Source: Planctomycetota bacterium (GTDB lineage Bacteria > Planctomycetota > UBA8742 > JACQVU01 > JANLHZ01). Taken from it: a stretch of DNA of 36,011 nt. Below the pieces are notes generated by a model that saw nothing but the letters and a program-made list of their open reading frames with translations, was not told where the DNA came from and ran no database searches. Below are positions 10,100 to 26,521 of the stretch, piece by piece. How positions within the stretch are numbered: position 1 is the first letter of the stretch; each line of letters opens with the position of its first letter. The stretch lies in NCBI GenBank assembly GCA_024653775.1, contig JANLHZ010000040.1, forward strand, positions 1 through 36,011, read 5' to 3'. The translations under genes and the position numbers were made by a program.

Positions 10100-11179
10100 T
10101 CACAGCGACGCAGCCGCGCGGGAGACGAGAGTCTGAATCTGTTTGTAGGATTCTAGGAAATCGTCGACCGTTCCGCCTATCGGGTCGGGGACGTCGCTGC
10201 CCGGATCGAGAAGACGAATCCTGCCCGCCACGGAAGGATCGATCGACAGCAGCGCGTCGCGGTGGGAGCGCTCCATAGCGAAAATGACGTCGAAGACCTT
10301 CAGCGGAATCGCTGCCGCGTGCTTCGAAAAATGACTCGTATCGAGGTACCCAAGCAGGTTCAGCGCCTGTACGCCCGGCTCAGGAATCGGGATTCCAGTC
10401 GGCGCGTAAGTCCCCGCGCTCATCACCGACACGTCGTACGGAACCCTCCCGTCCTTCTCCGCGTTCTTTCGAAGCAGGTCGCGAAACATTATCTCCGCCG
10501 CGGGACTCCGGCAAAGGTTTCCGGTGCAGACGAAAAGCACCGACACGCCGCTCGCGATACGGATGTCGCGCTCGCTGACGGCTCCTTCCCGCAGGATTTC
10601 GAAGCCCGACGAGCCGAGCTTAGCGACGGTCGACGCTTTCTCGCCGCAGGGTTTCTTCGACGCGAGAATCACCGCAAGCTCGCTGCCGAACTTCGCCTGA
10701 ATCTCCTTCGCGTCGCGCAGAGCAGGCTCGCCTGATACGTTCGCGCTCGTCGAAAGCAGCGGCGTGCGATACTCACCCAGGATTCTCAGCACGGATTTTT
10801 CGTCCGGAACGCGAAACCCGAGGCTCATTTTCCCGGTCTCCGCAACGATCGTCAGCGGCCCCGGCCACAGCTTTCGCGCGACTTTCTTCACCGGAAGCGA
10901 AATTCCCGGGCAAAGTTCTTCGAACCGTTTCGCGCTGGAGACGAACCGCGTAAAAAGTTTCTCCTCGGGCCGCTTCTTCAGTTCCGCGAGCCGTTTTTCA
11001 CCACCCGGCGCGCCTTCGCTGACGCAGAGTCCGTAGACGGTCTCCGTGGGGACCGCGATGATCTCGCCGCGGTCGAGCGCGCGGAGAATCACCTCGATCC
11101 TCCCCGGCGGGAAGAACTCGTCGAACGGCCCGACAATCGTTCCGGGCGGCACTCTGTCGTCGGCTAAGCTGAGCATCAT
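10100..11179 (-). CDS. Fusion of Sua5/YrdC threonylcarbamoyl-AMP synthase and LMW tyrosine phosphatase
   Basis: 359 residues. Residues about 25-208 are a Sua5/YrdC domain (AVPTETVYGL at 42-51, KKRPEEKLF at 69-77, STSANVSGEPA at 143-153), which makes threonylcarbamoyl-AMP from threonine, bicarbonate and ATP for tRNA t6A37. Residues about 212-359 are a low-molecular-weight protein tyrosine phosphatase: catalytic P-loop CTGNLCRS (C218 and R224, the CX5R motif) and a late DP pair in VPDPIGG for the general acid. The ATG at 11179 overlaps the ruvX stop by ATGA, with AAGGG upstream, so translation is probably coupled. The phosphatase half is of the Wzb type that dephosphorylates BY-kinases and is encoded near one here (12380-14599). 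Its substrate here is inferred. Confidence 0.92.
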   Translation of the reverse strand: MMLSLADDRVPPGTIVGPFDEFFPPGRIEVILRALDRGEIIAVPTETVYGLCVSEGAPGGEKRLAELKKRPEEKLFTRFVSSAKRFEELCPGISLPVKKVARKLWPGPLTIVAETGKMSLGFRVPDEKSVLRILGEYRTPLLSTSANVSGEPALRDAKEIQAKFGSELAVILASKKPCGEKASTVAKLGSSGFEILREGAVSERDIRIASGVSVLFVCTGNLCRSPAAEIMFRDLLRKNAEKDGRVPYDVSVMSAGTYAPTGIPIPEPGVQALNLLGYLDTSHFSKHAAAIPLKVFDVIFAMERSHRDALLSIDPSVAGRIRLLDPGSDVPDPIGGTVDDFLESYKQIQTLVSRAAASL

Positions 11180-14665: not shown

Positions 14666-16048
14666 TCAGTCCTCGTTGATGATGGCGCCGCGCGCGGAAT
14701 CTATGTTCGATACCGCGAACGCTCCTCCGGAAACCGGAGACAGAATCCTCCCGATGGTATCGAGCACGTCCGAGAGAGTACTCTCCGGAATGTAGAGCAC
14801 GTCGCCGTCGTGTAGCGGGAGGTTGTATTCGAGCCTTCCGCCTTCGAGAGCCCCGTCGAGATCGAGCTTGTGACTCTCCGGATTTTCTGGCCAGCCCGTG
14901 ACGAGGACCGCCTCGCTCGTCACCGCGCCGAAACGCTCGAACTCCGCAAGCGAAAGCAGGTGCAGAACGCTCGAATCCGGGCCGATCTCGTAAACGCCCG
15001 GCCTTCTGACCATTCCGAGCACGAACACCTGACGTATGCTTTCGTTCCTGCGCGGGACGTGCACCGTGTCTCCCGGCAGCAGCACGATCGTCTCCCGCGC
15101 GGATTCCTGGAACAGCGCGTTTCGAAGGTCGATCTTCGTTATCTCCCCCGCGGGCGAAACTATCTGGACTCTCGCGAGGTCCGCGTTGCCCGCTACTCCC
15201 CCCGCGCTTGTCAGCAACTGCGCGATGCTGACGCCGTTCTGCCTCGGATGGACCTTGTACGTGAATCCGGACGTCTCGACCGCGCCGTTGATTACGATCG
15301 GCCTTCGATCCGCGATGAAGATCTTGTCCCCCTCATCGACGATGATGTTCTCCTCGATTCTTCCGCGCTCGAGGATGTCGGAGAGAACGACTGTCTTCTC
15401 GTCGCTGGTTGCGCCGCGCATCCTGAAAATCCTGACTTCCTCGATCCCCATTCCCGGAGTCCATCCAGCCTCGCTGAGCGCGTCGAGAAGATCGCCCTGG
15501 AACCTGATCCTCACCCTTGGCGCAAGCCCGGTCGCTATTATCTCCACGAATCGCTCGCGCTCCTTCACCATCCTGATGCCAACTTCTACCCGCGGACCTT
15601 CTCCCGAAGCGAGGAAGCCCGCAAGCTTGCCGAGGATCGCCCTTTTCGCGTCCACGATGCTGCGTCCGCCGACTTCGACCTCGCCAATGAAGTCGAGGAT
15701 GATTTTTCCGTCCCGTCCAACCTTCTGCGTCGTCTTAACTGAAGGTTCCGAGTTGATGGTAACGTCCAGCTCGTCGTCCGCGCCGAGGATGTAGTTCGAA
15801 TCGTACGAGCCGGGTCGGTTCGAGAACCAGTCCGGATGGTTCGGCTCCCGCAGCGACCTTTCGCCCAGCCTTCGCTCCGGGTCCGCGAAGAACGCCAGCG
15901 TCTCTGCATCCGCGACTCCGCGCGCGTAGAGCTCAGGCGTTTTCACCTGAAGCGTAGGCGCAGGAGGCCCCGAGCACGCGAAAAGCCCCGCGGCAAATGT
16001 CGAAGTCGCGCACACCAAAGTAAAGAGAGAGAGAGTTTTGCTTTTCAT
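14666..16048 (-). CDS. Wza-like polysaccharide export (OPX) lipoprotein
   Basis: 460 residues with a lipoprotein signal (hydrophobic core then AGLFAC, lipidated Cys25). Residues about 88-175 are a Poly_export domain (ILGADDELDVTI, GRDGKIILDFIGEVEVGG). SLBB-type domains follow: one after RRPIVINGAVETSGFTYKV and one after RQVFVLGMVRRPGVYEIG. The protein forms the outer-membrane/periplasmic channel for capsule or exopolysaccharide. It lies 66 bases before the Wzz/BY-kinase gene and 24 bases after a second SLBB lipoprotein gene, so the three form an operon. The C-terminus lacks an obvious amphipathic Wza-type outer-membrane helix. The ATG has GGCGGAAG upstream. Confidence 0.93.
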   Translation of the reverse strand: MKSKTLSLFTLVCATSTFAAGLFACSGPPAPTLQVKTPELYARGVADAETLAFFADPERRLGERSLREPNHPDWFSNRPGSYDSNYILGADDELDVTINSEPSVKTTQKVGRDGKIILDFIGEVEVGGRSIVDAKRAILGKLAGFLASGEGPRVEVGIRMVKERERFVEIIATGLAPRVRIRFQGDLLDALSEAGWTPGMGIEEVRIFRMRGATSDEKTVVLSDILERGRIEENIIVDEGDKIFIADRRPIVINGAVETSGFTYKVHPRQNGVSIAQLLTSAGGVAGNADLARVQIVSPAGEITKIDLRNALFQESARETIVLLPGDTVHVPRRNESIRQVFVLGMVRRPGVYEIGPDSSVLHLLSLAEFERFGAVTSEAVLVTGWPENPESHKLDLDGALEGGRLEYNLPLHDGDVLYIPESTLSDVLDTIGRILSPVSGGAFAVSNIDSARGAIINED

Positions 16049-16072: not shown

Positions 16073-17302
16073 TTACTTCAGATATTTTTCGACCTGTAAC
16101 GGGTAATAGCCGGGACCGCTGAATCCCGAACTGAAAGTCAATTCATTGAAATTTCCATCGCTCGCGAACGGTGTGTAGGAAGACGGGAGCTGCCTTTCCT
16201 CGCTGTAGCCGGACCAGCTCGTCCCGAGGGCGGAGACGATGCGGTTCGCGTATTCGAGCGCTTCCGCGAGAGTCGTTCTCGGGATGAATATCACCGCGCC
16301 GTCCTCGACAACGGGAACATGCCCCCGGTAACTTCCGGAAAGGAACCGGCTGACGTCGTACACCTTCGGCGCACCGTTTTGCGGCTGGTACACGGTCTCC
16401 TCGAATTTAGAGCCGAACTGAAGGAACCCTGCCATAGAAGCCGCCTGAGTGAGAGATATGGGAGGTCTCGTCACGAACATGCCTCCGCGCAAAACCTCCC
16501 CGAAAACGTAGAAGTGGATCAGCTCCGATTCCTCGGAACTTCCAACTATTTTCGTCCCCGGCGGTACTTCCAGGTTAGCCCAATTTTGGATTTTCACGAT
16601 TTCGAGCCAGGGGATGCGCATCGAGTCGCCTTCCGGAGAGAGAACCGTGACGCTTTTCAGAGACAGGGACTTAGCGGAATCGGACTCCAGCGAAACAGCG
16701 ATCTCGCCCCACGTAATGTTCCGGTCCGTCGTCGGCGAAAGCATCTGAGGCTCGCTCCCAACCCGCGGGATCACCATCACCTTTTTCACCGGCGTCGCGA
16801 TCAATTTGTCCCCCGCGAAAACTTCCCGCGCGAGAAGAGTTACGTTCTCCGGACCTTTGATGTCGTACGTCAGCGCGCGGCTTCCACGAATCTGCAAGAC
16901 GGTTCCGATGAACGAATCATGCTTCAGTCCGGCGAGGGAAAGCGCTCCCGCCACCGACATTCTCGGTTTGTACTCGACTTCGTATAGCCCAGAAGGAGTT
17001 ATGACCCTGACCACACTGACCTCGTCCTCGAAGTACGCCCGCGGGAGGTAGTTTCTCCGTGGCGCAATCTCAGGGCTTTCGAATGAAACCTCCCGTACGG
17101 AATCCAGCTTCGCAAGGAACGACCCGTAATCCACCGCCGCTATGTACTCCGGCACTTCAGTCGTTACCGAAGCCGAGGCGCACCCGAGCAGGGTCAATAA
17201 AATCGAAATTAACGGTAAGTACCTGAGCCGGACGAGTCGAGACCCAAATACCTCGGCGCTGAGGAGGAATCGAAAATCGTCTCGTTTTGCTGATGTTTTC
17301 AT
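16073..17302 (-). CDS. Second SLBB/OPX-like lipoprotein
   Basis: 409 residues from the ATG at 17302. A long basic n-region leads to a hydrophobic core and lipobox LLGCAS (Cys41). The body has SLBB-like stretches (SGLYEVEYKPRMSVAGALSLAGL; FYVFGEVLRGGMFVTRPPISLTQAASMAG) and ends with PVVEDGAVIFIPRTTLAEAL, matching the end of the downstream OPX protein. A canonical Poly_export domain is not clear, so it may be an accessory export lipoprotein. The first residues MKTSAKRDDF and the start codon come from a dispersed repeat (17251-17316) with copies at 23879 and 30615. A TTG seven codons upstream (17323) is an alternative start; no strong ribosome site is seen for either. Confidence 0.8.
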   Translation of the reverse strand: MKTSAKRDDFRFLLSAEVFGSRLVRLRYLPLISILLTLLGCASASVTTEVPEYIAAVDYGSFLAKLDSVREVSFESPEIAPRRNYLPRAYFEDEVSVVRVITPSGLYEVEYKPRMSVAGALSLAGLKHDSFIGTVLQIRGSRALTYDIKGPENVTLLAREVFAGDKLIATPVKKVMVIPRVGSEPQMLSPTTDRNITWGEIAVSLESDSAKSLSLKSVTVLSPEGDSMRIPWLEIVKIQNWANLEVPPGTKIVGSSEESELIHFYVFGEVLRGGMFVTRPPISLTQAASMAGFLQFGSKFEETVYQPQNGAPKVYDVSRFLSGSYRGHVPVVEDGAVIFIPRTTLAEALEYANRIVSALGTSWSGYSEERQLPSSYTPFASDGNFNELTFSSGFSGPGYYPLQVEKYLK

Positions 17303-17316
17303 GCGTAAGCGACTAA
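17251..17316 (-). repeat. MKTSAKRDDF repeat, copy A (overlaps a gene start)
   Basis: About 60 bases match copies at 23879-23972 and 30615-30720. The shared core runs from TTAGTC through ATGAAAACATCAGCAAAACG to CTCAGCGC. Read in frame it supplies the start codon and first 17 or so residues of the SLBB lipoprotein. The GC-rich tail (GCAGAGGCGCAGAG) of the other copies is absent or diverged here. Confidence 0.85.
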
Positions 17317-17367
17317 TTCCCAACTCTTAATTCTTAACTCTTAACTCTTAACTCTTAACTCTTAACT
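17317..17367. repeat. TTAAGAGTTAAGAATT array, copy 4
   Basis: Seven consecutive 7-base units, mostly AACTCTT, the longest array in the window. It fills the space between the FecR-protein stop and the repeat at the next gene start, and overlaps the last two codons of the FecR gene. Confidence 0.85.
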
Positions 17368-19278
17368 CAGTTGAAGGTCTATCGCTGTAACTTCGAATTT
17401 TCCCGTCTGCAAATCTTTTTCCAGGGTTCCGTACACTACAAGGTTTAGAGTCCTCTTCAGTCTGCCGAGATAGAAATACTCTATCTTGAGGTTGACTCTT
17501 CCTATGACTACGCGGACTTCGTCTCCCGGAGGTCCCATGGGCGTGAAGCGTATCGCACTCGGCGAACCCGGCTCGTCCACTCGTTTGACATCCGGAGTAA
17601 CGACCATCCCGTAATCGGGATCGGTTCCGTACGTCCTTGCGATGTCCTTCATCTCGGCTATCGTCCAGATGCTCTTCGGATCATTCGCGTGGAAGGTCAG
17701 CCCCGACACTATCACACTGTCGTCGATCCCCTCCGCGGCGTCAAAATAGCGACGGTCGTTCAGCGCGTCGACTATCCTCCAGAACTCGATAAGGATATTG
17801 GTCCTGTCGGTCGCGTTCACTGAAGGCGTCACGGGCTGCTGATTCTGCCGGTTGTTGTTCTGCGGGTTGTAAATCCACGGGTTCTGGTTTGCGAACTGCT
17901 GGATACTCGTGATGGTATTCGCAATTCCCTGCGCGCGCGCCAAATCCTGAGCGTTCGCGTCGCCAGTCCCGGCGCCCGTAGTAGTCGTCGTCGTCGCGCC
18001 CGTTGTAGTGCCGGTTTCGGTAGTTTCGCTGCCGGTGGACTGGGTCGACGTTCCTGAGCCGCGGTTCGAAGTTCCCGCGGTCTGCCCGGTTTGCTGCGTG
18101 CCAGTTTGCTGCGAATCTGTCTGCTGAGACCCGGTTTGCTGCGTGCCAGTTTGCTGCGTGCCAGTTTGCTGCGATCCCGTCTGCTGCGATCCGGTCTGCT
18201 GCGATCCCTGATTCTGCGCCGGATTCGAGAGGTTTTGAAGGACGTCCTGCATCACTGAATTTGCAAGCTGCTGTTGTTCGGTACTAAGCACGCTAAGCGC
18301 GTTCAGAATCTGCTGCGTCTGCGATTGCTGGTTTCCGGTGGGGGAATTAACAACATCGATTGAATTGAATTTTTTGTTGTGAATGGCAGTCTGTCCCGTC
18401 GAGCACATCGTCAGTCCGGAAAGTCCGGAACCTTGCAATCCGGGGCCTTGCAATCCGGGGCCTTGTCCCCCTGATCCAAGCGCGACATTCTGAATGCTTG
18501 CAGAAAAGTCGTTCAGGAAATTTGCCAGCGACTGGCCCATTCCGCCCAGACCGCTACCAGCAGAACCTCCGCCGGTTCCACCGCCGCCACCAGTACCGCC
18601 CACACCAGAACCACCACCGCCGCCGCCCGTTCCGCCGCCGCCAGTACCACCGCCGCTTTGAAGGCCTCCCGGAAGGTTAATTCCCATTGGTAGCGGTTTA
18701 GTAAACGCTGTGCCGTTTTGGACTACGAGGTCGCCATCACTCGTATTCGCGAGAGTCGTTCCGCGCACGCCGACCACCGACACTGGAGTGGTGACACGGT
18801 ACTTGACCTGATCTTTCATTCCTTCGTACTCGCCAACGTGGGAAAGCAGCGCGCCTTCCGCGATGAATACGTCGGTCGGCCTATCCTTTTCCGGAGGGTT
18901 CGCCTGCATAAGGTGGAGCAGGGAGTTTTCCTCGAGCATGAACCCGGTTTTTGAATCGAGCATGATCTGCACGCGCCCGCCTGGGCCGGTTCTGATCCAG
19001 CTTCCGTTCGAAATGCTGGTGCTGGCGAGGACCGCGGTCCAGTCGCCATCCGGAACGGATTTAATATCCTTCGGATTGAAATGCAGCATCTCCGCCGGTG
19101 GACGGAAATGGACCACTCTCGCGGACGCGACGAAGTCGATCGTGACTGGCGTTCCCATGGCCTTCGGCGCGTTCAGGAGCATGCTCGCTCCGTACGCCAC
19201 CGCGATCACTAGCCAGAACGCGACCGCGCCGAAGATGAATTTCCTGGATAGAACTTTGCTTTTTCTGTCCGTAGACAT
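17362..19278 (-). CDS. FecR-domain membrane protein with Gly-rich and Gln/Thr-rich repeats
   Basis: 638 residues. One membrane segment (about 14-32) anchors the protein with a short cytoplasmic N-terminus. Residues about 75-195 are a FecR-type domain (NGSWIRTGPGGRVQIMLDSKTGFMLEENSLLHL, then VTTPVSVVGVRGTTLA). A glycine-rich linker follows, then a region of QTGSQ/QTGTQ pentapeptides (eight 15-base units). The last 150 residues form a folded domain beginning RTNILIEFWRIVDALNDRRYFDAAEG, which loosely resembles a SnoaL/NTF2 fold. FecR domains outside iron uptake are common in exported and surface proteins. The start lies 3 bases after the upstream stop with GGGGTGAG as ribosome site, so it is co-translated with the 960-residue protein. 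Function unknown. Confidence 0.8.
   Translation of the reverse strand: MSTDRKSKVLSRKFIFGAVAFWLVIAVAYGASMLLNAPKAMGTPVTIDFVASARVVHFRPPAEMLHFNPKDIKSVPDGDWTAVLASTSISNGSWIRTGPGGRVQIMLDSKTGFMLEENSLLHLMQANPPEKDRPTDVFIAEGALLSHVGEYEGMKDQVKYRVTTPVSVVGVRGTTLANTSDGDLVVQNGTAFTKPLPMGINLPGGLQSGGGTGGGGTGGGGGGSGVGGTGGGGGTGGGSAGSGLGGMGQSLANFLNDFSASIQNVALGSGGQGPGLQGPGLQGSGLSGLTMCSTGQTAIHNKKFNSIDVVNSPTGNQQSQTQQILNALSVLSTEQQQLANSVMQDVLQNLSNPAQNQGSQQTGSQQTGSQQTGTQQTGTQQTGSQQTDSQQTGTQQTGQTAGTSNRGSGTSTQSTGSETTETGTTTGATTTTTTGAGTGDANAQDLARAQGIANTITSIQQFANQNPWIYNPQNNNRQNQQPVTPSVNATDRTNILIEFWRIVDALNDRRYFDAAEGIDDSVIVSGLTFHANDPKSIWTIAEMKDIARTYGTDPDYGMVVTPDVKRVDEPGSPSAIRFTPMGPPGDEVRVVIGRVNLKIEYFYLGRLKRTLNLVVYGTLEKDLQTGKFEVTAIDLQLS
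18088..18207 (-). repeat. Eight 15-base in-frame tandem repeats
   Basis: Units such as AGTTTGCTGCGTGCC and CGTCTGCTGCGATCC repeat with exact 15-base period and encode (Q-T-G/D-S/T-Q). Copy-number change would keep the reading frame. A second 15-base repeat encoding GPGLQ lies at about 18418-18465 in the same gene. Confidence 0.9.
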
Positions 19279-19281
19279 TTC

Positions 19282-22164
19282 TCACCCCATGGGAATGTTT
19301 TCGAGGAGAAAATTCCTTAGCTGCTTTCTTGCTTCCTGGTCCGGATTCCGAGGATTGACGTGGAACCTCGCCAGCCGCTTCTTCCCTTCGAACGGAAGCG
19401 AAACAAGTTTCGTCCGCTCATCGTCCTTCGTCCTTACCATCGAAACCGCAATGACGTCGCCGCCGAGAAGCTCTTCGTACCATGAAAGCAGTCCGGAAAC
19501 CTTCAGGATACTATCATCTCGTCCGTCTATGTTCCCATTTATGTTATGGTCTGTTTCAATAATCACACATTTTTTCCCCCCGGACTTCGACTGGAACATC
19601 AGCAGCCCGTGGATCAGCGGCATCATCTCGCGGGCGCCGTTCAGACTCGCGAGCTTCTCTTCGAGTGAAAGCGCCGGAACCTGCGTAATGAGGTCGTCGA
19701 TGGAAACGCGGAACGAAATGTACGCGTGTACAAGCGGCGTCGTCACCGCGATGATCGGCTTTTCCCTGTGCTCCTTCACAGCAACCTGTCTGAACGTCGC
19801 AAGGTCCCCGGCGAACGCGTCCCGGACGACATGACCGAGCGTGTGCAGCGCGAAAATTCTAAACAGCGTCTGATCGAACTTCTCGCCGTACTCGAAGCTC
19901 TCGAGCTCGCTGACCTCGATTTTGCGGAATCCCCTCAGTTTATAATCCTCGAACCAGTCGATCAGCGAAGCGTAATCGTCGGACGCCTCGCCTGCGAGAC
20001 CCTTCTCGATTCTTCGCTCGGACGCGGAAAGCAGCCGCGTCGGCGCGGAATCGTCCAAAGACCCGGCCCGGAACTTCCTCGTCTTGCAAAGATTCTTGTC
20101 CGCGAGCAGATCGCGCAGGTACGCGTACCTCGCCTCGAGCGCTGAAGTCTGCGGCGAATCCTCATCGAGGAGCGCGCGGATTTCTTCAAGCTCCCGCGCG
20201 ACGAGGGATACGATTTCCGCGAGCAATTCGTTTTCCGGAGTCTCGTTCGTCGGGACGCTGACCACGCACGGAAACTCCCGCTCCGTCCGTCGATCCGAAA
20301 GACGGTTCTTGACGTACTCGCTGACGTTCAGCCTGCCGCGCACGTCGCCGCGGAAGCGTCTCGTATCGAGTTCCCGTCCCTCGGACGAAGCACCCCTGAT
20401 CCGCTCGACGATCTTTTCGAGTTCCGTAAGCGAGATAAGAAGTTCGTCCGACTCCTGCGCCTTCCGGAAATCGATCGTGGTTCTGCGAAGCGAAGTCTCG
20501 AGGTCCGGGAAGTGCGAAAAAACGAGCGCCCCCGACTCCTTCAGAATCGCGAGCCGGTCTTCGTCATCAAGCCCTTCGCGCAGCGATCTGGTTTCGTCGT
20601 CCGCGCGATCGTCCGCGAGTTCGTACAGACTCACGCTTTCGCCGCCTGCGGAGGCCAGCAAGGTCAACCTGATCTTGCGAGCGCGAACGTCGGGGAACGG
20701 AAACTCCCGTTCGATTTCCGCGCCGAAGCCGTCCATAATCCGGACTACGATCCCTTTCCGGTCCGTCTCCCGTGGCGGGACGCGGAGAATCGTCAGCTCA
20801 CCGCCTTCTGAAATCTTCGCGAAAGATTCCGTCTCCTCCGAAAGCGAATAGAAATACGGCTCGGTTCCGCCCGCGACTTCGATTCTCGGATTGTACTCCC
20901 GCTCCACGTCGAACGCCGGGAGCGCCTCGGTGACGAAATGAAGCTCCAGGCTTCCCGCAAGCACCGGCCCGGAGGCTAAAAGCTTAGGATAGATCGCGCT
21001 GACTTCCTCGCCCTCCGGAGCCGGTTCGTAAGGCGGGATTCCTTGCGTGGCACGGGCATCTTGCCCGTGATCCATCGGCGAGACGCCGATGCCACTGCCC
21101 AGATCCCTCGCAGCGGCTTCGAAATCCTGCTCGTGAAATTCCGCGTCGAACGCATCCAGGATGCTGTCCATCGAATCTTCCCCGGAAGAACGCTCCTCTG
21201 GAAACTCTACTTGCGCAGCTTCCTCCAACTCCTGCTGCTCCGTCGCCTCCGGTTCCCCCGCTAAGCGGTAATTCGGGTTCTTCGCGACGTTCAGCGTCGC
21301 GCCCGCGAGTTTCTGGAACGGCACCGGACTCGAGTCCCGCACACGAATCGCGAATTCATGCACGCCCGCGCTTTCCGGCTTCGGGAATCCGAAGACGCTC
21401 GCGGACTCCGCGCCTAGCCGGAGACCATCAGGAAGCGACCCTTCGATAACTTCGACGTAATAGGGCTTCCTGCCGCCGTAGATGGTGAAGTTCTGTTCGT
21501 AGTATTCGAGAGCGCGCGCGTCTTCGAGAACCTGCTCCGGAACGTCCAGTTCCGACTGCGGGAGGATTTCGACGTCCACCGACGCGATCTGACGCTGCGG
21601 CGGAGTCCCGGAATCCTCGACTACGAAGAACAGCCTGCAAACGCCGACCGCGTCGTTCGTCGGATGCCCCGAAAGCTTCCCCAATCCAGGGAACCAGAGC
21701 AGTCCCGCGGGCGGGTCCGGAAGTATCGCGGTGTGTACGTACGGAGGAGTCCCGCCGTCCGCCTCGACGAACATGTCGAACGGCTGGTCTTCCGTTCCCT
21801 GGACACGCAGCGGAAGTCTTATTTTCAGCGGGCTTACGATCTTTGGCGCCTCGGAAGGCGTGGATTCGACTTCCTTCTTCGCGATCCTGACCTCGGTTTT
21901 CGGGCGCGCCACCGAACTGGACGCGGCCTTTAAGCGCTGAGCTGCGCCCGAAGACGGAACATCGAGAGTCGCGGTGCTCCTCGAAACCGTCACATGTTTC
22001 GAAGCGACGAGTTTCAGAATCTTTTCGAGACGTTCGCGGATGGCTCCGCCTACCCAGGGAAGCGCGAGTAGTGCGTTGACGCTGTCCGAAACCTCGGCGA
22101 ATTTCTGCTCGCCGAGATCCCGCTTTATTTTCGCCAGTGCGTCATCGATGTTCGCTTTTACCAT
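19282..22164 (-). CDS. Large Ig-like protein with a McrC/DUF2357-like core
   Basis: 960 residues without signal peptide or membrane segment. Residues about 115-200 and 205-297 are He_PIG-type Ig-like domains (GGTPPYVHTAILPD, PAGLLWFPGLGKLSGHP; GGRKPYYVEVIEGSLPDGLRL); a third beta domain lies at about 415-490. Residues about 606-780 resemble the McrC/DUF2357 core: GDVRGRLNVSEYVKNRL, then FPCVVSVP and ETPENELL, helices, and QTLFRIFALHTLGHVV. The last 160 residues would be the place for a PD-(D/E)xK nuclease; the best strand, KKCVIIETDHN (865-875), has ETD rather than ExK. A degenerate VWA domain is an alternative for this region. The AAA gene lies 127 bases upstream and would fit an McrB partner. 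A dispersed repeat is read in frame at residues 359-375. Assignment of the core is by eye. Confidence 0.6.
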   Translation of the reverse strand: MVKANIDDALAKIKRDLGEQKFAEVSDSVNALLALPWVGGAIRERLEKILKLVASKHVTVSRSTATLDVPSSGAAQRLKAASSSVARPKTEVRIAKKEVESTPSEAPKIVSPLKIRLPLRVQGTEDQPFDMFVEADGGTPPYVHTAILPDPPAGLLWFPGLGKLSGHPTNDAVGVCRLFFVVEDSGTPPQRQIASVDVEILPQSELDVPEQVLEDARALEYYEQNFTIYGGRKPYYVEVIEGSLPDGLRLGAESASVFGFPKPESAGVHEFAIRVRDSSPVPFQKLAGATLNVAKNPNYRLAGEPEATEQQELEEAAQVEFPEERSSGEDSMDSILDAFDAEFHEQDFEAAARDLGSGIGVSPMDHGQDARATQGIPPYEPAPEGEEVSAIYPKLLASGPVLAGSLELHFVTEALPAFDVEREYNPRIEVAGGTEPYFYSLSEETESFAKISEGGELTILRVPPRETDRKGIVVRIMDGFGAEIEREFPFPDVRARKIRLTLLASAGGESVSLYELADDRADDETRSLREGLDDEDRLAILKESGALVFSHFPDLETSLRRTTIDFRKAQESDELLISLTELEKIVERIRGASSEGRELDTRRFRGDVRGRLNVSEYVKNRLSDRRTEREFPCVVSVPTNETPENELLAEIVSLVARELEEIRALLDEDSPQTSALEARYAYLRDLLADKNLCKTRKFRAGSLDDSAPTRLLSASERRIEKGLAGEASDDYASLIDWFEDYKLRGFRKIEVSELESFEYGEKFDQTLFRIFALHTLGHVVRDAFAGDLATFRQVAVKEHREKPIIAVTTPLVHAYISFRVSIDDLITQVPALSLEEKLASLNGAREMMPLIHGLLMFQSKSGGKKCVIIETDHNINGNIDGRDDSILKVSGLLSWYEELLGGDVIAVSMVRTKDDERTKLVSLPFEGKKRLARFHVNPRNPDQEARKQLRNFLLENIPMG
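21046..21093. repeat. HGQDARAT-type palindromic repeat inside a gene
   Basis: Two hairpins in tandem: CACGGGCA/TGCCCGTG and ATCGGCG/CGCCGAT. On the minus strand it reads GIGVSPMDHGQDARAT in frame with the surrounding gene. A second, non-coding copy lies at 30794-30842. The insertion sits in a low-complexity acidic linker between Ig-like domains. Confidence 0.85.
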
Positions 22165-22219: not shown

Positions 22220-22291
22220 GTGAGTAGTTTATTGCTGCTTCTTCCATTCCCAATTCTTAACTCTTAACTCTTAACTCTTAATTCTTAATTA
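22220..22291. repeat. TTAAGAGTTAAGAATT array with conserved flank, copy 5
   Basis: Six 7-base units (22246-22291) touch the stop codon of the ATPase gene. The flank at 22220-22245 (minus strand GGGAATGGAAGAAGCAGCAA) is shared with the copy at 28207-28262, so the full element is longer than the array. Confidence 0.85.
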
Positions 22292-23620
22292 CTAGTAGGT
22301 CAGTCTCGACCATATCCTGTCCATGGTTTTGGGGAACTTATGCGGTTTGTCGTCAGGGCCGCGAAGTTCGTTTCCGAAGAAGTCGTAGAGCCTGCGCAGG
22401 ACGGTGCTTTCCCTTCCTGCGAGCAACGGAACGAGACGTGACGCGCATCCGAAATCGAGCGCGCTTACAAGCTGCGCATCGAAGTCCTGATCCGCCGCGG
22501 TTCCGAGGATGTTCGGCCTTACGATACAGGTCTTCATAATGTCGAGGATCGTGCTCGTCCCGAGGTGATGCCCGATCGCGAAACTCTTCTTCGCGCCAGA
22601 AAGGCGATGGTACCGGACGAAGTAAACGATCCTCCGGATGAGGTCGAACACTTTGCCGTAAGGATTCGCGACGTTGAAAACTTCTTCGTGCCGAAGGCTC
22701 CGGGATTCATCTTCTTCGATCGCGGCCATCGAAAGGACGTCCCTGGCGCGGAACTGATCGCCACCCCAATACGGCGACGTGACGCCCAGCGCCAAGACGT
22801 TTCGCGCGACGCGGTTCGTCGCGATGACGAGTTCCCGCGCGAAGTTCATTTCCGCGCCGTCAAGCGTCGGCGGCGCGACCCGAATCGTCTGGAACCTTCG
22901 GGAAAGACCTTCGGACATCTCGTACATGTACTCGCGATCGCTGGCGTTCAGCGTGGCGAGAATCCTGAATCTCGCGGGGACGAAAATCCTTTTCTTGCGG
23001 GCTTCCTCGTGGAAGTATAGCGAAAGTTCCCGCTCGCCTTCTCCGCCGAACACGCTGAAAAGCTCGCCCAGGTATCGATCCGGCTTTCCGCGGGACATCT
23101 CGTCCAGAATGAACCACACCGCCTGCGGTTCGCCCGTGATGCTCGCGTTCATTCCGTCCGCGTAGACCTTGCGCGACATCTGCTTACAGCATTCGAGGAC
23201 GCAGTTCACAAGAGAGCCGTTCCGCGGCTTTATGACCTCCCGGCCATCGACTATCGAAAGACTCAGCCCGCCGATGACGTCGTATCCCGTCCAGTCTTCG
23301 TTCGCGGTGACGACGACGGTTCGCGCGCTAAAAACATCCCGCGCGATCATTTTCACAAGGTCCGTCTTTCCCGTTCCCGGAGGACCCTCGACTATGACGT
23401 TGTCCGTCGCAAGCGCCGAGACGATGTCGAGCAGAACGTCCTTCTCGATGGCGAGATGCTTCTGGATTTCCGCGACCTTCTCGTCAAGCTTTTCTGGCAG
23501 CAGCAGCGGATAGTGCGCGAAATGCTTCGTCCGCTGGTAGTCCTCCTCAAGCTCCATTTCAGCGGGAACCCAGCTCTTCGGGTCAAGCGACCTCACGGAT
23601 AGTATCTTGTCGACAGCCAT
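22292..23620 (-). CDS. AAA_5 family ATPase (McrB/MoxR-like)
   Basis: 442 residues, one AAA+ domain. Walker A GPPGTGKT (79-86), Walker B AVWFILDEMSRG (167-178), sensor-1 ATLNASD (222-228) and an arginine pair in GLSRRF (238-243) are all present. The LDEMSRG and TLNASD forms point to the AAA_5 group that includes McrB and dynein-like ATPases rather than classic MoxR. The 200 C-terminal residues are helical and of no known family. The ATG has AAAGG upstream. It sits between the winged-helix protein gene and the McrC/DUF2357-like gene; McrB-type ATPases usually form hexamers that drive a neighbouring effector. Confidence 0.9.
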   Translation of the reverse strand: MAVDKILSVRSLDPKSWVPAEMELEEDYQRTKHFAHYPLLLPEKLDEKVAEIQKHLAIEKDVLLDIVSALATDNVIVEGPPGTGKTDLVKMIARDVFSARTVVVTANEDWTGYDVIGGLSLSIVDGREVIKPRNGSLVNCVLECCKQMSRKVYADGMNASITGEPQAVWFILDEMSRGKPDRYLGELFSVFGGEGERELSLYFHEEARKKRIFVPARFRILATLNASDREYMYEMSEGLSRRFQTIRVAPPTLDGAEMNFARELVIATNRVARNVLALGVTSPYWGGDQFRARDVLSMAAIEEDESRSLRHEEVFNVANPYGKVFDLIRRIVYFVRYHRLSGAKKSFAIGHHLGTSTILDIMKTCIVRPNILGTAADQDFDAQLVSALDFGCASRLVPLLAGRESTVLRRLYDFFGNELRGPDDKPHKFPKTMDRIWSRLTY

Positions 23621-23969
23621 TATAACCTTTTATATTTCGTCCTTTACGTTACGTGGTGGGAACGCGGACGTCCCGTCCGCGAAATTCATCAAGCGTCCTC
23701 GCTTGATGGATAAACAAGGCCTCCTGTAACCGCAAACGCCAGTGGTGAAATAGAAATTGCGCAGACGAGGACGTCTGCACTCCCAGGCAACCACGTGAAC
23801 GGCTACGAACCTTTTCAATTCTCCTTCCGAATTCTTTGCGGTTTGGCTCCTTTGCGGGGTCGGCGAATTTGAATTTCTATTCTCCGCGAGCCTCCGCGTC
23901 CTCTGCGTCTCCGCGCTGAGGAAATAAAGAAAATCGTCTCGTTTTGCTGATGTTTTCATTGATAAGGGA
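23621..23969. other. Intergenic stretch made mainly of repeat remnants
   Basis: No gene is supported. Short palindromes related to the 7298 element occur (GCGGACGTCCCGTCCGC near 23656; AGACGAGGACGTCT near 23763) and the right third is a copy of the MKTSAKRDDF repeat. Open frames across this stretch use the repeat and run antisense or out of frame into the neighbouring gene. A promoter for the downstream ATPase gene could be here but none stands out. Confidence 0.6.
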
Positions 23970-23972
23970 CTA
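23879..23972 (-). repeat. MKTSAKRDDF repeat, copy B (supplies a stop codon)
   Basis: Same core as the copies at 17251 and 30615 plus the GC-rich tail with CTGCGTCTCCGCGCTGAGG. On the minus strand it begins at CTAGTCCCTTATC; the TAG of this edge is the stop codon of the upstream 500-residue gene, so the gene now ends exactly at the repeat boundary. Confidence 0.85.
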
Positions 23973-25472
23973 GTTTTCCCGGCCCTGGTAGAGCACCCGG
24001 AATTTTTCGAGATGCAGTCGAACCATCCGGGTATAGTCCCCGGAACCGTCGCCAGATGGTTCCGACAAACCCGAAACCGGCGTTTTGCCGACAAGCTGAT
24101 AAAGCCAGCTATCGACTGGAACCGGGATGTCCTCCGAAGTATTGAAGAACTGGATAATCGCGCCGTGAGGAAGCGCTTCCGCGATAGAGGCCGGACATTC
24201 GTAACTGTTCGGCCCGAGCCTTTTCGTATCCGAAACATGCACGGAGAACAAAGGAGCATCCCCACGATCCGATTTTCTCGCGAAGACGTCGGAGACGCTT
24301 CCGAAGTATTCGAACCACATTCGATGGATTTCCGCGTCGCGACTTGCATCCGGGTTCATTCCGCCCTGATTCGACGGTCTCGCGAATTCCGGCCTGAACA
24401 CCGTCCGGCCGATAAGGGTCAGAAGACGATGCATTTCCCTTCGCGCGAGTTTCACATCGTTCTGCCCGGAACCGAAAAATTGTCCGAGTTTCGCTTCGCC
24501 TTCCAAGTGAAGGTAGCAGCCCCGCCTCGGCGAGTAGCCTTCGCCCGACGGGACAAGCGCCATATCCCGAATGGAAAGGAACGGACTGAACGCCAGCAAT
24601 TCCATCACCCGTCGGTGTTTTTCCCCGGCAGAGGTTATCGACCCCGCGGTGTTTTCTCCGGCGGCTTCGATCGAGTCTTCGTTTCTCCTCGAACTTGCGA
24701 TTTCTTTTGCGATGAACGACGGTGGCAAGCCTTCCTTCGCCTGCGTGAGCGTGTGCGCGAACTCATCCGGGCTGAGATAACCGAGAAAATTTTCGGATCG
24801 TTCGAGGTTGTCCAGCACTTCGAGGACGAGGCAGAAGGGCTTTATAATCGGGTTCCCCAGAAGATCGCCTTTCAGGAGAGTGTGGTCGGAAGTCTGCCAC
24901 CGCATAAGCTGAACGCTCGCGAACAGTCCTCCGGCGCCCGAATTCCCGGCGCTTCTGACGTTTCCGATTCTTTCGTTTCCGGCCCAGCCGCCCACGTTAG
25001 AGCCGCCCACGTTAGAGCCGCCCACGTTAGAGCCGCCCACGTTAGAGCCGCCCGCAAGCCAGTTGCATATCGGCGTGATGCTGAAAGTCCCCCCCGCGCG
25101 ATGAGCCCCCGCGTGATAGACCCCCGCGTGATAAACATCGTCTCGCTCGATGAACACTAGTCCGAAGAATTCCGCGAACGCAAGTATTCTCTTCAGCCGC
25201 GCTTCTCCCGGACCACCGGACTTTTCGTCGTCTTCCGAGCCGGGGTCATCCCTTCTCAAAAACGAAGCTATCGACTGGAGAGCGTCCGAGTTCTGAAGTT
25301 TTGCAATCGAAACTCTTCCGAATTCGCCGCGGGAATCGCCCGCGGCGTTAGCCGCAGAGTTTAGGGCGGACGTCGCGTGCAACTCGTAGAACGAAGCGAG
25401 GCTCCTCGCGAGACTGTAAAGATGTCCCGGATCGGAATTTTCGAAAATGTTGATCGGAGGAGGATACTTCAA
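23970..25472 (-). CDS. AlwI-like winged-helix protein with pentapeptide repeats
   Basis: 500 residues. Residues about 88-135 look like a winged helix (LKRILAFAEFFGLVFIE ... FSITPICNWLA), followed by GLFASVQLMRWQ (182-193), PIIKPFCLVLEVLDNLE (208-224) and GYLSPDEFAHTL (231-242). This order recalls proteins related to AlwI-type restriction enzymes and their McrB-linked relatives. No PD-(D/E)xK motif is evident. Two in-frame 15-base repeats sit in loops: VYHAG x3 (about 113-127, the predicted wing) and GGSNV x4 (141-160). The start is TTG at 25472, overlapping the upstream stop as TTGA with GGAG 8 bases before it; the next ATG is far inside. The stop codon comes from a dispersed repeat. Family call is by eye. 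Confidence 0.65.
   Translation of the reverse strand: MKYPPPINIFENSDPGHLYSLARSLASFYELHATSALNSAANAAGDSRGEFGRVSIAKLQNSDALQSIASFLRRDDPGSEDDEKSGGPGEARLKRILAFAEFFGLVFIERDDVYHAGVYHAGAHRAGGTFSITPICNWLAGGSNVGGSNVGGSNVGGSNVGGWAGNERIGNVRSAGNSGAGGLFASVQLMRWQTSDHTLLKGDLLGNPIIKPFCLVLEVLDNLERSENFLGYLSPDEFAHTLTQAKEGLPPSFIAKEIASSRRNEDSIEAAGENTAGSITSAGEKHRRVMELLAFSPFLSIRDMALVPSGEGYSPRRGCYLHLEGEAKLGQFFGSGQNDVKLARREMHRLLTLIGRTVFRPEFARPSNQGGMNPDASRDAEIHRMWFEYFGSVSDVFARKSDRGDAPLFSVHVSDTKRLGPNSYECPASIAEALPHGAIIQFFNTSEDIPVPVDSWLYQLVGKTPVSGLSEPSGDGSGDYTRMVRLHLEKFRVLYQGREN
24991..25050 (-). repeat. Four perfect 15-base tandem repeats (GGSNV)
   Basis: Unit CCCACGTTAGAGCCG, four identical copies, encoding G-G-S-N-V on the minus strand. 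Complete identity suggests recent expansion. Confidence 0.95.
25091..25135 (-). repeat. Three 15-base tandem repeats (VYHAG)
   Basis: Units CCCCCGCGCGATGAG, CCCCCGCGTGATAGA and CCCCCGCGTGATAAA encode AHRAG, VYHAG and VYHAG. They lie 40 bases from the GGSNV array in the same gene. Confidence 0.9.
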
Positions 25473-26521
25473 CGAACGTGCTCCAGGAATAGTTTCTTTA
25501 GTGCCGCGATTTTGGTCTGATCGTACGAGGCGTCAGGTTTAGCTTCCGAAATGCACCTGAATCCAAGATGGCTCTCTTTGGTCGAAATCAAAGCCTTCGA
25601 ATAGTGCTCGATCGTCAGATCGATCGGCCCCGCGAGATACGATCCGCCCTTGATAATGTAATACTTCGGCGACGACTGCCCGAAATAGTCGGTCTGGATT
25701 CCGGTGGTCGTCCACTCGTAGCAGTTGCCCGCCAGATCCTCGATTCCGAACTGATTTGCGCCGCGGGGATAGTTTCCGACGGACACAAGCCCGAAATGTT
25801 CCGAATGATTCGCCTGGCAGCAGTCGAAATTGAAATCCTTTCCCCACGGATAGATCCGACCATCGCTCATGCCCGCGAGATGCAGCCACTCCACAACGTT
25901 CGGAATGCGTTTTCCCGCCCACCTGGCATAATTCTGCGCGTCTTCAAGCGAAACGAATACAACCGGATGGAAGAGCACATCCGACTTCGGCAGCGTCCCC
26001 GCCCACGACGGCGGCCTGGGCGTCCCGGTTTCGAGGCAATAAAGCGCGTACTGAAGGTTCGTTACCGGAAACTTGTCCGCGTAGAAATGCCCGACCTCGA
26101 TTTCACCCGAAAGGCTGTCCTTCACCAGTTTCGACACCATCGAGCCTTCCACGATGAACGTCTCGCCCGGAACGTAGCAGGTTTCGAGCAGGCGTTCGAC
26201 TTCGAACTCGGGACGACGCAAACCGTCCCTGAACGATCCCGATTCCAGCTTCAGAAGCTCACGCGAACCCTCCTCGCGACGCAGTTCGAACAGCTCGTCC
26301 ACCTGATTGTTCGTAAGCGAGCCAAGCTCGTATGCGACAAGCGCCAGCGGCTTCCATACGCCGGTTTGTTCATAACAAAGTTGCTGCTGCGTTTCGATCT
26401 GAGAAAATTCCCCCGCGGCAACCACTCCGGAAATGAAATCGAATTCCCAAATATCGTTGACAGGCAACTCCCGTTTGTGGGAGAACTTCGGTTCCTGGGG
26501 TTTCACTTTGGGACTGCTCAT
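25469..26521 (-). CDS. FGE/sulfatase-modifying-factor fold protein without catalytic cysteines
   Basis: 350 residues. Residues about 25-95 hold two similar helical segments (ISGVVAAGEFSQIETQQQLC; LVAYELGSLTNNQVDELFEL) resembling the small N-terminal regulatory domain seen in some bacterial kinases and GspE/MshE proteins. Residues about 140-335 are the FGE-sulfatase fold: DKFPVTNLQYALYCLETG, HPVVFVSLEDAQNYARWAGKRIPN, EWLHLAG, YPWG, GIEDLAGNCYEWT, IKGGSY and a final HLGFRCI. True formylglycine-generating enzymes have two cysteines after the GGSW segment; here that segment (GGSYLAGPIDLTIEHYSK) has none. It is more likely a ligand-binding C-type-lectin-like domain. It is the first gene of the block and overlaps the next by TTGA. 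The start has only a weak AGG. Confidence 0.85.
   Translation of the reverse strand: MSSPKVKPQEPKFSHKRELPVNDIWEFDFISGVVAAGEFSQIETQQQLCYEQTGVWKPLALVAYELGSLTNNQVDELFELRREEGSRELLKLESGSFRDGLRRPEFEVERLLETCYVPGETFIVEGSMVSKLVKDSLSGEIEVGHFYADKFPVTNLQYALYCLETGTPRPPSWAGTLPKSDVLFHPVVFVSLEDAQNYARWAGKRIPNVVEWLHLAGMSDGRIYPWGKDFNFDCCQANHSEHFGLVSVGNYPRGANQFGIEDLAGNCYEWTTTGIQTDYFGQSSPKYYIIKGGSYLAGPIDLTIEHYSKALISTKESHLGFRCISEAKPDASYDQTKIAALKKLFLEHVR

What the first reader, a model, noticed from the sequence alone, without database searches (positions are those of the whole stretch)
19282..22164. McrC/DUF2357-like core fused to Ig-like domains, with an altered nuclease site
The motif series GRLNVSEYV, FPCVVSVP, ETPENELL and LFRIFALHTLG is in the order expected for McrC/DUF2357 proteins, and the gene lies beside an McrB-like ATPase. 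He_PIG-type Ig domains at the N-terminus of a protein with no signal peptide are unusual. The strand where a nuclease would have ExK reads IIETDHN, so the effector may be inactive as a nuclease or may be something else.
Basis: inference. Interest (0 to 1): 0.58.

Follow-up and report, generated by a model that had tools for sequence, protein, structure and literature searches.

The report
Restriction-enzyme relative in a polysaccharide-export operon
A gene pair related to the DNA-cutting McrBC restriction enzyme, with its cutting site apparently lost and sugar- or protein-binding-type domains added, sits inside genes for exporting a polysaccharide coat, which suggests a bacterial defence motor that was reused for another job.

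Summary
Window 19282-22164 (-) encodes a 960-aa soluble protein: Ig-like (He_PIG) domains, then an McrC/DUF2357-type core, then a PD-(D/E)xK-like fold without the catalytic residues. Evidence: an HMM built only from four plasmid McrC-like proteins finds it at E=1.4e-15 (next unrelated ORF 0.19; best of 1000 shuffles 4.7), and a weak AlphaFold model (pLDDT 52.6) matches McrC structures at ranks 1-5. No vWA domain appears. The neighbour 22292-23620 is an McrB-like AAA+ protein. In plasmid and viral-contig relatives the pair lies in restriction-modification operons and keeps an intact nuclease motif in 12 of 12 proteins; in the window and its one ortholog (G011) it is lost in 2 of 2. A third genome has a related ATPase beside Poly_export, whereas 0 of 20 other McrB-like loci do. 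Best reading: an McrBC-derived, non-cutting AAA+ module reused for polysaccharide export or its control. Identity is well supported; function is inferred. New variant of a known kind.

The parts
19282..22164 (-). He_PIG/McrC-like protein, 960 aa (the finding)
21547..21840 (-). first Ig-like domain, residues ~109-206
   Evidence: BLAST to He_PIG repeats of the G011 ortholog; not called by Pfam in the window
21265..21546 (-). second Ig-like domain (He_PIG, residues ~207-300)
   Evidence: PF05345 29.1 bits, cut-off 24
20665..20970 (-). possible third Ig-like stretch, residues ~399-500
   Evidence: by eye only (printout)
19729..20547 (-). McrC finger/DUF2357-like region, residues ~540-812
   Evidence: the ortholog matches PF09823
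19354..19647 (-). degenerate PD-(D/E)xK-like domain, residues ~840-937
19543..19563 (-). IIETDHN (868-874), in place of the D-x-K strand
22292..23620 (-). McrB-like AAA+ ATPase, 442 aa (AAA_5), NxxD motif NASD
23970..25472 (-). unknown 500-aa protein, conserved upstream of the ATPase in G011
   Evidence: BLAST E=5e-10; G011 copy has a below-cut-off BpuJI_N hit
25469..26521 (-). FGE-sulfatase-domain protein, 350 aa, overlaps the next gene by 4 bp
   Evidence: PF03781 99.4 bits; G011 copy E=4e-38
17362..19278 (-). FecR-domain protein, starts 3 bp after the finding's stop
   Evidence: PF04773 36.7 bits
16073..17323 (-). SLBB-like, lipoprotein-like protein
   Evidence: weak SLBB hit below cut-off
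14666..16048 (-). Wza-type polysaccharide export protein (Poly_export + SLBB)
   Evidence: PF02563 50.8 bits
12380..14599 (-). Wzc-type chain-length/BY-kinase
   Evidence: TIGR01007 over cut-off

Best explanation
An McrBC-derived AAA+ module that no longer cuts DNA and has been taken into a polysaccharide-export operon. Shown by computation: the protein is a homologue of McrC (DUF2357-type finger plus a PD-(D/E)xK-like fold), its neighbour is McrB-like, the nuclease residues are lost, Ig-like domains are added, and the gene heads a FecR-SLBB-Wza-Wzc operon (gene order varies) in two genomes. Inferred: the ATPase forms a hexameric ring with the McrC-like finger in its pore, as in McrBC; ATP (perhaps not GTP) hydrolysis moves or remodels a partner; the dead nuclease is kept as a scaffold; the Ig domains and the FGE-domain protein pick the target, most likely a cytosolic face of the export machine (Wzc/FecR) or a regulator of it. 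So the module would act as an assembly or activity switch of polysaccharide export, not as a restriction enzyme.
For: Homology: plasmid McrC HMM finds window 1.4e-15 and G011 1.9e-14 of 1357 ORFs, next 0.19; seven viral-contig McrC-likes score 1.2e-44 to 1.8e-57 with the same HMM and five of them were aligned with the window. Fold: Foldseek ranks 1-5 are McrC chains (best E 1.6e-4); VIA ranks 1-5 McrC, Z 9.0-7.7. Partner: ATPase profile best in PDB is McrB (8.1e-10 for two rows; 9.4e-24 for seven). Nuclease: intact PD/ID...D-x-K in 12 of 12 relatives (L093-L097, L157-L163; ten by pattern, L157 and L097 by eye), 0 of 2 in window and G011. Operon: the finding and FecR 3 bp apart; G011 ortholog followed by SLBB-type, Poly_export, Wzc, FecR genes; G001 has a clade member close to Poly_export (4.6e-12). 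Control: Poly_export HMM hits 8 of 8 positive loci and 0 of 20 other McrB-like loci. Origin: ATPases of window and G011 (100/99) lie inside a clade with eight R-M-linked ATPases (99/96).
Against: Only one true ortholog (G011) was found. In G011 the ATPase/FGE/unknown block is on another contig, where no export gene was seen, so the ATPase is polysaccharide-linked in 2 of 3 genomes only. No experiment or expression data. The window protein alone fails Pfam; A1 against canonical DUF2357 by hhalign gave only 23% probability, E 8.9e-4, and HMM A4 gives E 3.9 for the window. The window's nuclease part is not aligned by HMM beyond about residue 808. The AlphaFold model is weak (pLDDT 52.6, pTM 0.36). 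G001's McrC-like fragment is supported by eye only.
Confidence: 0.5

Rival explanations
1. A defence module: the McrBC-like pair senses an invader and, having lost its nuclease, acts by changing the surface polysaccharide or by stopping growth; the operon context reflects the output.
For: The nearest relatives are R-M operons with DNA methyltransferases on plasmids and viral contigs. Dead-nuclease McrC proteins with Ig domains exist in CoCoNuT defence systems. FGE domains occur in conflict systems (recalled).
Against: No methyltransferase or known effector among the window genes scanned; no PADLOC hit for the McrC-like or unknown proteins.
Confidence: 0.2
2. Still a restriction nuclease with a rearranged active site (for example E870 with a displaced lysine, or EGK at 926-928).
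For: Two E-x-K triplets exist in the C-terminal part of the window protein (starting at residues 835 and 926 in the listing); PD-(D/E)xK sites tolerate swaps (recalled).
Against: The PD aspartate and the D-x-K lysine are absent in the aligned register; the E-x-K triplets lie outside the strand that carries the motif in relatives; the ortholog lost different residues; no methyltransferase nearby.
Confidence: 0.1
3. A decaying or neutral remnant: a former R-M module inserted next to export genes and losing function.
For: Catalytic residues lost; a dispersed-repeat insert (residues 355-376) lies inside the protein; rare distribution.
Against: 960- and 1020-aa frames are open; the finger region is 28% identical over 300 residues and the ATPase 39% identical between distant genomes, with Walker A/B, NxxD and arginines kept; same export neighbours in both.
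Confidence: 0.12
4. A MoxR-vWA type chaperone of the ternary conflict systems (Kaur et al. 2020) rather than McrBC.
For: bpMoxR hit for the ATPase (25.5 bits) and FGE neighbour.
Against: bpMoxR is below its cut-off (27), McrB scores best in PDB, no vWA domain found, fold matches McrC.
Confidence: 0.03

Closest known systems
McrBC-like restriction-modification operons on actinobacterial plasmids and viral contigs (methyltransferase, methyltransferase, X, AAA+, McrC-like), resembling BsuMI (BsuMI likeness recalled; a YdjA-YdiS model appears at rank 21)
   Same: Homologous ATPase and McrC-like protein as adjacent genes
   Different: Relatives have DNA methyltransferases and an intact nuclease, and no Pfam He_PIG hit in those scanned; the window has a lost nuclease motif, He_PIG domains and export genes
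E. coli / Thermococcus McrBC (type IV restriction)
   Same: AAA+ with NxxD and two arginines; DUF2357-type finger plus PD-(D/E)xK-like fold
   Different: No DNA-binding domain detected on the ATPase; residue after GKT is Asp/Glu, not an aromatic or Arg; nuclease residues lost; Ig domains added
CoCoNuT systems (Bell et al. 2024, PMC11090510, passages read)
   Same: McrC proteins with an N-terminal Ig-like domain and, in some types, an inactivated nuclease
   Different: CoCoNuT ATPases have NxD, here NxxD; none of their accessory genes was seen here; export operon instead
MoxR-vWA ternary conflict systems (Kaur et al. 2020, PMC7159879, sections 8, 22, 24 read)
   Same: AAA+ plus a large partner
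   Different: Partner is McrC-like, not vWA

Membership tests
McrC (DUF2357 + PD-(D/E)xK) | sequence homology of the finger/DUF2357 region | tested here: met
   HMM of intact plasmid members E=1.4e-15; ortholog matches PF09823 at 23.6 bits in the genome search (cut-off 23.3) but 20.6-22.0 bits in hmmscan
McrC (DUF2357 + PD-(D/E)xK) | McrC fold with C-terminal nuclease-like domain | tested here: met
   Foldseek and VIA ranks 1-5 McrC; nuclease-like part also matches nuclease chains; model confidence low
McrC (DUF2357 + PD-(D/E)xK) | intact PD...(D/E)xK active site | tested here: not met
   0 of 2 (window, G011), against 12 of 12 relatives
McrC (DUF2357 + PD-(D/E)xK) | basic residue that stimulates McrB (Ec K157 / Tg R263) | tested here: inconclusive
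   K157 lies in GGKNTRYY of E. coli McrC; no basic residue is clearly conserved there in this subfamily, intact members included (by eye)
McrB GTPase | Walker A/B, NxxD consensus loop, tandem arginines | tested here: met
McrB GTPase | aromatic or Arg after GKT for base stacking (PMC7680126 passages) | tested here: not met
   Asp in window, Glu in G011, Thr/Ser in the R-M relatives L093-L096
McrB GTPase | GTP rather than ATP hydrolysis | not testable with these tools
   needs enzymology
CoCoNuT | NxD in place of NxxD | tested here: not met
   NASD in window, NSVD in G011
MoxR-vWA beta-propeller ternary system | vWA component | tested here: inconclusive
   no vWA hit in Pfam; McrC fold found instead
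Restriction-modification system | cognate DNA methyltransferase in the operon | tested here: not met
   none among the window genes scanned

The most novel reading that the evidence does not exclude
A restriction-enzyme motor was exapted, perhaps more than once (window/G011 and, separately on the tree, G001), as a non-cutting AAA+ machine for exopolysaccharide export or its regulation, with Ig and FGE domains as target readers: a McrBC-type module whose substrate is not nucleic acid.
Probability: 0.3. Interest if true: 0.8.

Novelty: new variant of a known kind. Interest (0 to 1): 0.6.

Why it matters
McrBC is known as a DNA (or, in CoCoNuTs, proposed RNA) restriction machine. A version that lost its nuclease and travels with Wza/Wzc/FecR would show that this motor can be reused outside nucleic-acid defence, or that defence and surface polysaccharide are wired together. 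It also makes testable what the McrB ring and McrC finger do without cutting.

Tried and rejected
vWA/MoxR reading: rejected, see rivals. Single-sequence AlphaFold of residues 501-960 was poor (pLDDT 39.8) and was not searched. PDB sequence searches with the finding, with A1 and with A6 gave nothing relevant; A4 gave only unrelated chains. The scan of genome contigs with the C-terminal part found no relative; with the ATPase pair it found 35 remote loci only. Viral contigs with A2, A6 and the L093 McrC gave none; with A7 63 loci, of which the first seven are close. hhalign of the unknown upstream protein against canonical McrC: E 0.31, no relation; BLAST shows no relation to the 'X' proteins of the plasmid operons either. 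Whether DHNINGNIDGRDD is an EF-hand-like loop: looked at by eye, it breaks the PROSITE pattern as I recall it at two positions; not claimed. A search of 26 genomes reached through for DUF2357 gave 2 matches, used only to start the canonical alignment. Paper searches for McrBC with polysaccharide export listed no paper on such a link; only the listings were read. A BsuMI search listed nothing useful.

G270, third hit (E 0.0095), was dropped: its frame lies antisense to a kinase-like ORF. In one search, 39 of 392 genomes matched, but only G000 and G011 matched in the McrC-like region; the rest match the Ig part (or, in G244, residues 407-478). The phylum draws overlap, so their genome numbers must not be added up.

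Full report
1. What is there. Pfam calls one He_PIG stretch (29.1 bits, cut-off 24) and nothing else above cut-off. The protein has no membrane-grade segment. It belongs to a minus-strand run of genes: FGE-sulfatase protein, unknown 500-aa protein (4-bp overlap), AAA_5 ATPase, the finding, then FecR only 3 bp later, an SLBB-like protein, Wza-type Poly_export/SLBB protein and Wzc-type BY-kinase. The 349-bp gap between the unknown gene and the ATPase and the gap before the SLBB-like gene share a 67-nt repeat.

2. The ortholog. In 392 genomes of the phylum 39 had some match, but only one other genome, G011, matched the McrC-like part (28% identity over 300 residues, E 8e-37 in a pairwise test). 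Its 1020-aa protein has five He_PIG stretches and a DUF2357 match: 23.6 bits in the genome search (cut-off 23.3), 20.6-22.0 in hmmscan, that is below cut-off. It is followed on the same strand by an SLBB-like gene (by eye), Poly_export (54.1 bits), a Wzc-type kinase and a FecR-like gene (FecR 21.8 bits, below cut-off 24). The ATPase ortholog (39%, E 9e-94) is on another contig of G011, again in the order FGE, unknown, ATPase; no export gene was seen among that contig's ORFs, and the Poly_export search placed none there.

3. McrC identity. An HMM from nine canonical DUF2357-nuclease proteins finds the G011 ortholog first among non-training ORFs (E 5.3e-5 of 1357) but the window only at 3.9; profile-profile comparison gave E 8.9e-4 but 23% probability, in the register ETPEN opposite DVYEN. 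The decisive link came from plasmids: tblastn with the window ATPase and, separately, with the McrC-like parts of the window and G011 hit neighbouring genes on plasmids of Arthrobacter, Pseudarthrobacter, Paenarthrobacter, Cryobacterium and Mycobacterium paragordonae. An HMM of four of these McrC-like proteins finds the window at 1.4e-15 and G011 at 1.9e-14; the next ORF is at 0.19 and the best of 1000 shuffles at 4.7. One of the four has a Pfam McrBC hit (19.1 bits, below cut-off 23.9). Seven viral-contig loci carry the same pair. An AlphaFold model from the window plus five viral-contig rows (three of them nearly identical) has low confidence (pLDDT 52.6), yet McrC chains take ranks 1-5 in Foldseek (1.6e-4 to 1.1e-2) and ranks 1-5 in VIA (Z 9.0-7.7); the last third also matches several nucleases. 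Z near 8 can be common for unrelated helical folds, as the tool warns, so the agreement with the sequence result is what counts.

4. The nuclease. In the alignment with viral-contig relatives the window strand CVIIETDHN lies opposite CRILIDAKN and the helix DDSILKVSGLLSWY opposite SEETYKMLGYFENF. Ungapped, D and K are replaced by T and H; shifted by one, by E and D. Other alignments put MFQSK there, with Q for D. In no register is the D-x-K with its upstream PD present. G011 keeps the first aspartate (PSCDFIF) but has LVLPES for the D-x-K. The intact motif is present in 12 of 12 relatives (L093-L097, L157-L163; L159 and L160 are the same protein; ten by pattern, L157 and L097 by eye). L097 lies outside the ATPase clade.

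5. The ATPase. Best solved relatives are McrB proteins, ahead of midasin. Walker A and B, NxxD (NASD) and the two arginines are kept; the residue after GKT, which stacks on the base in McrB (PMC7680126, passages), is Asp or Glu, and Thr or Ser in the R-M relatives, so ATP use is plausible. A tree of 27 AAA domains puts window and G011 together (100/99), inside a clade with eight R-M-linked ATPases (99/96), with G001 as the next branch (100/99).

6. The operon link. G001's ATPase is fused to a DUF4340 domain; a Poly_export gene lies close downstream (4.6e-12) and an ORF without a Pfam family upstream. A truncated ORF at the contig end looks McrC-like by eye but scores nothing. The three genomes have only 3, 3 and 5 Poly_export genes. 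As control, 20 further McrB-like loci of the phylum (the 20 best after the clade members; stretches of 3.9-20 kb) were scanned: 0 of 20 have Poly_export, while the same HMM finds 8 of 8 known ones. Several of the 20 stretches are short, so a distant export gene could be missed there. The link is thus peculiar to this small group, though the numbers are small and G011's ATPase lacks it.

7. How it probably works. By analogy with McrBC the ATPase should form a ring around the McrC-like finger; without a nuclease the output must be movement or remodelling of a partner. The Ig domains, the FGE-domain protein and the operon point to the polysaccharide-export machine or its control. This last step is inference. 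A defence role with a changed output, a still-active unusual nuclease and a decaying remnant are the rivals.

8. Novelty. Ig-like domains and dead nucleases on McrC are known from CoCoNuTs (passages of PMC11090510). I found no paper on McrBC in polysaccharide export (listings only). The finding is a new variant of a known kind, in an unusual setting.

Noticed in passing
window 21037-21102 (residues 355-376): An in-frame insert (GIGVSPMDHGQDARATQ) that recurs at G000:C53:5629-5694 and G000:C97:34827-34907: a dispersed repeat inside coding sequence.
   Followed up: partly
window 17252-17318 and 23909-23975; 17302-17372 and 22232-22302: A 67-nt repeat (84% identical) and ACTCTTA-type short repeats at the gaps between genes of the operon.
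   Followed up: no
window 24986-25060 and 18086-18220: 15-nt tandem repeats inside the unknown gene (GSNVG repeats) and the FecR gene (GSQQT-type repeats).
   Followed up: no
window 19513-19551 (residues 872-884): DHNINGNIDGRDD, loosely like a calcium-binding loop, sits where the nuclease's catalytic strand ends; not supported by any search.
   Followed up: no
L090:1782-3872 (G001:C48): DUF4340-AAA_5 fusion of the same McrB-like clade beside Poly_export.
   Followed up: partly
L093:2117-9800, L094, L095, L096, L157-L163: A family of restriction-modification-like operons (methyltransferases, X, AAA+, McrC-like) on actinobacterial plasmids and viral contigs whose McrC-like proteins get no PADLOC hit in the members scanned; X is MTaX1 in L093.
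   Followed up: partly
L038:2496-3680 (G011 upstream gene): Below-cut-off match to the N-terminal domain of the restriction enzyme BpuJI (19.7 vs 25 bits), the only hint to the unknown gene's role.
   Followed up: partly
window 10100-11179: Sua5-type domain fused to a low-molecular-weight phosphotyrosine phosphatase close downstream of the BY-kinase.
   Followed up: no
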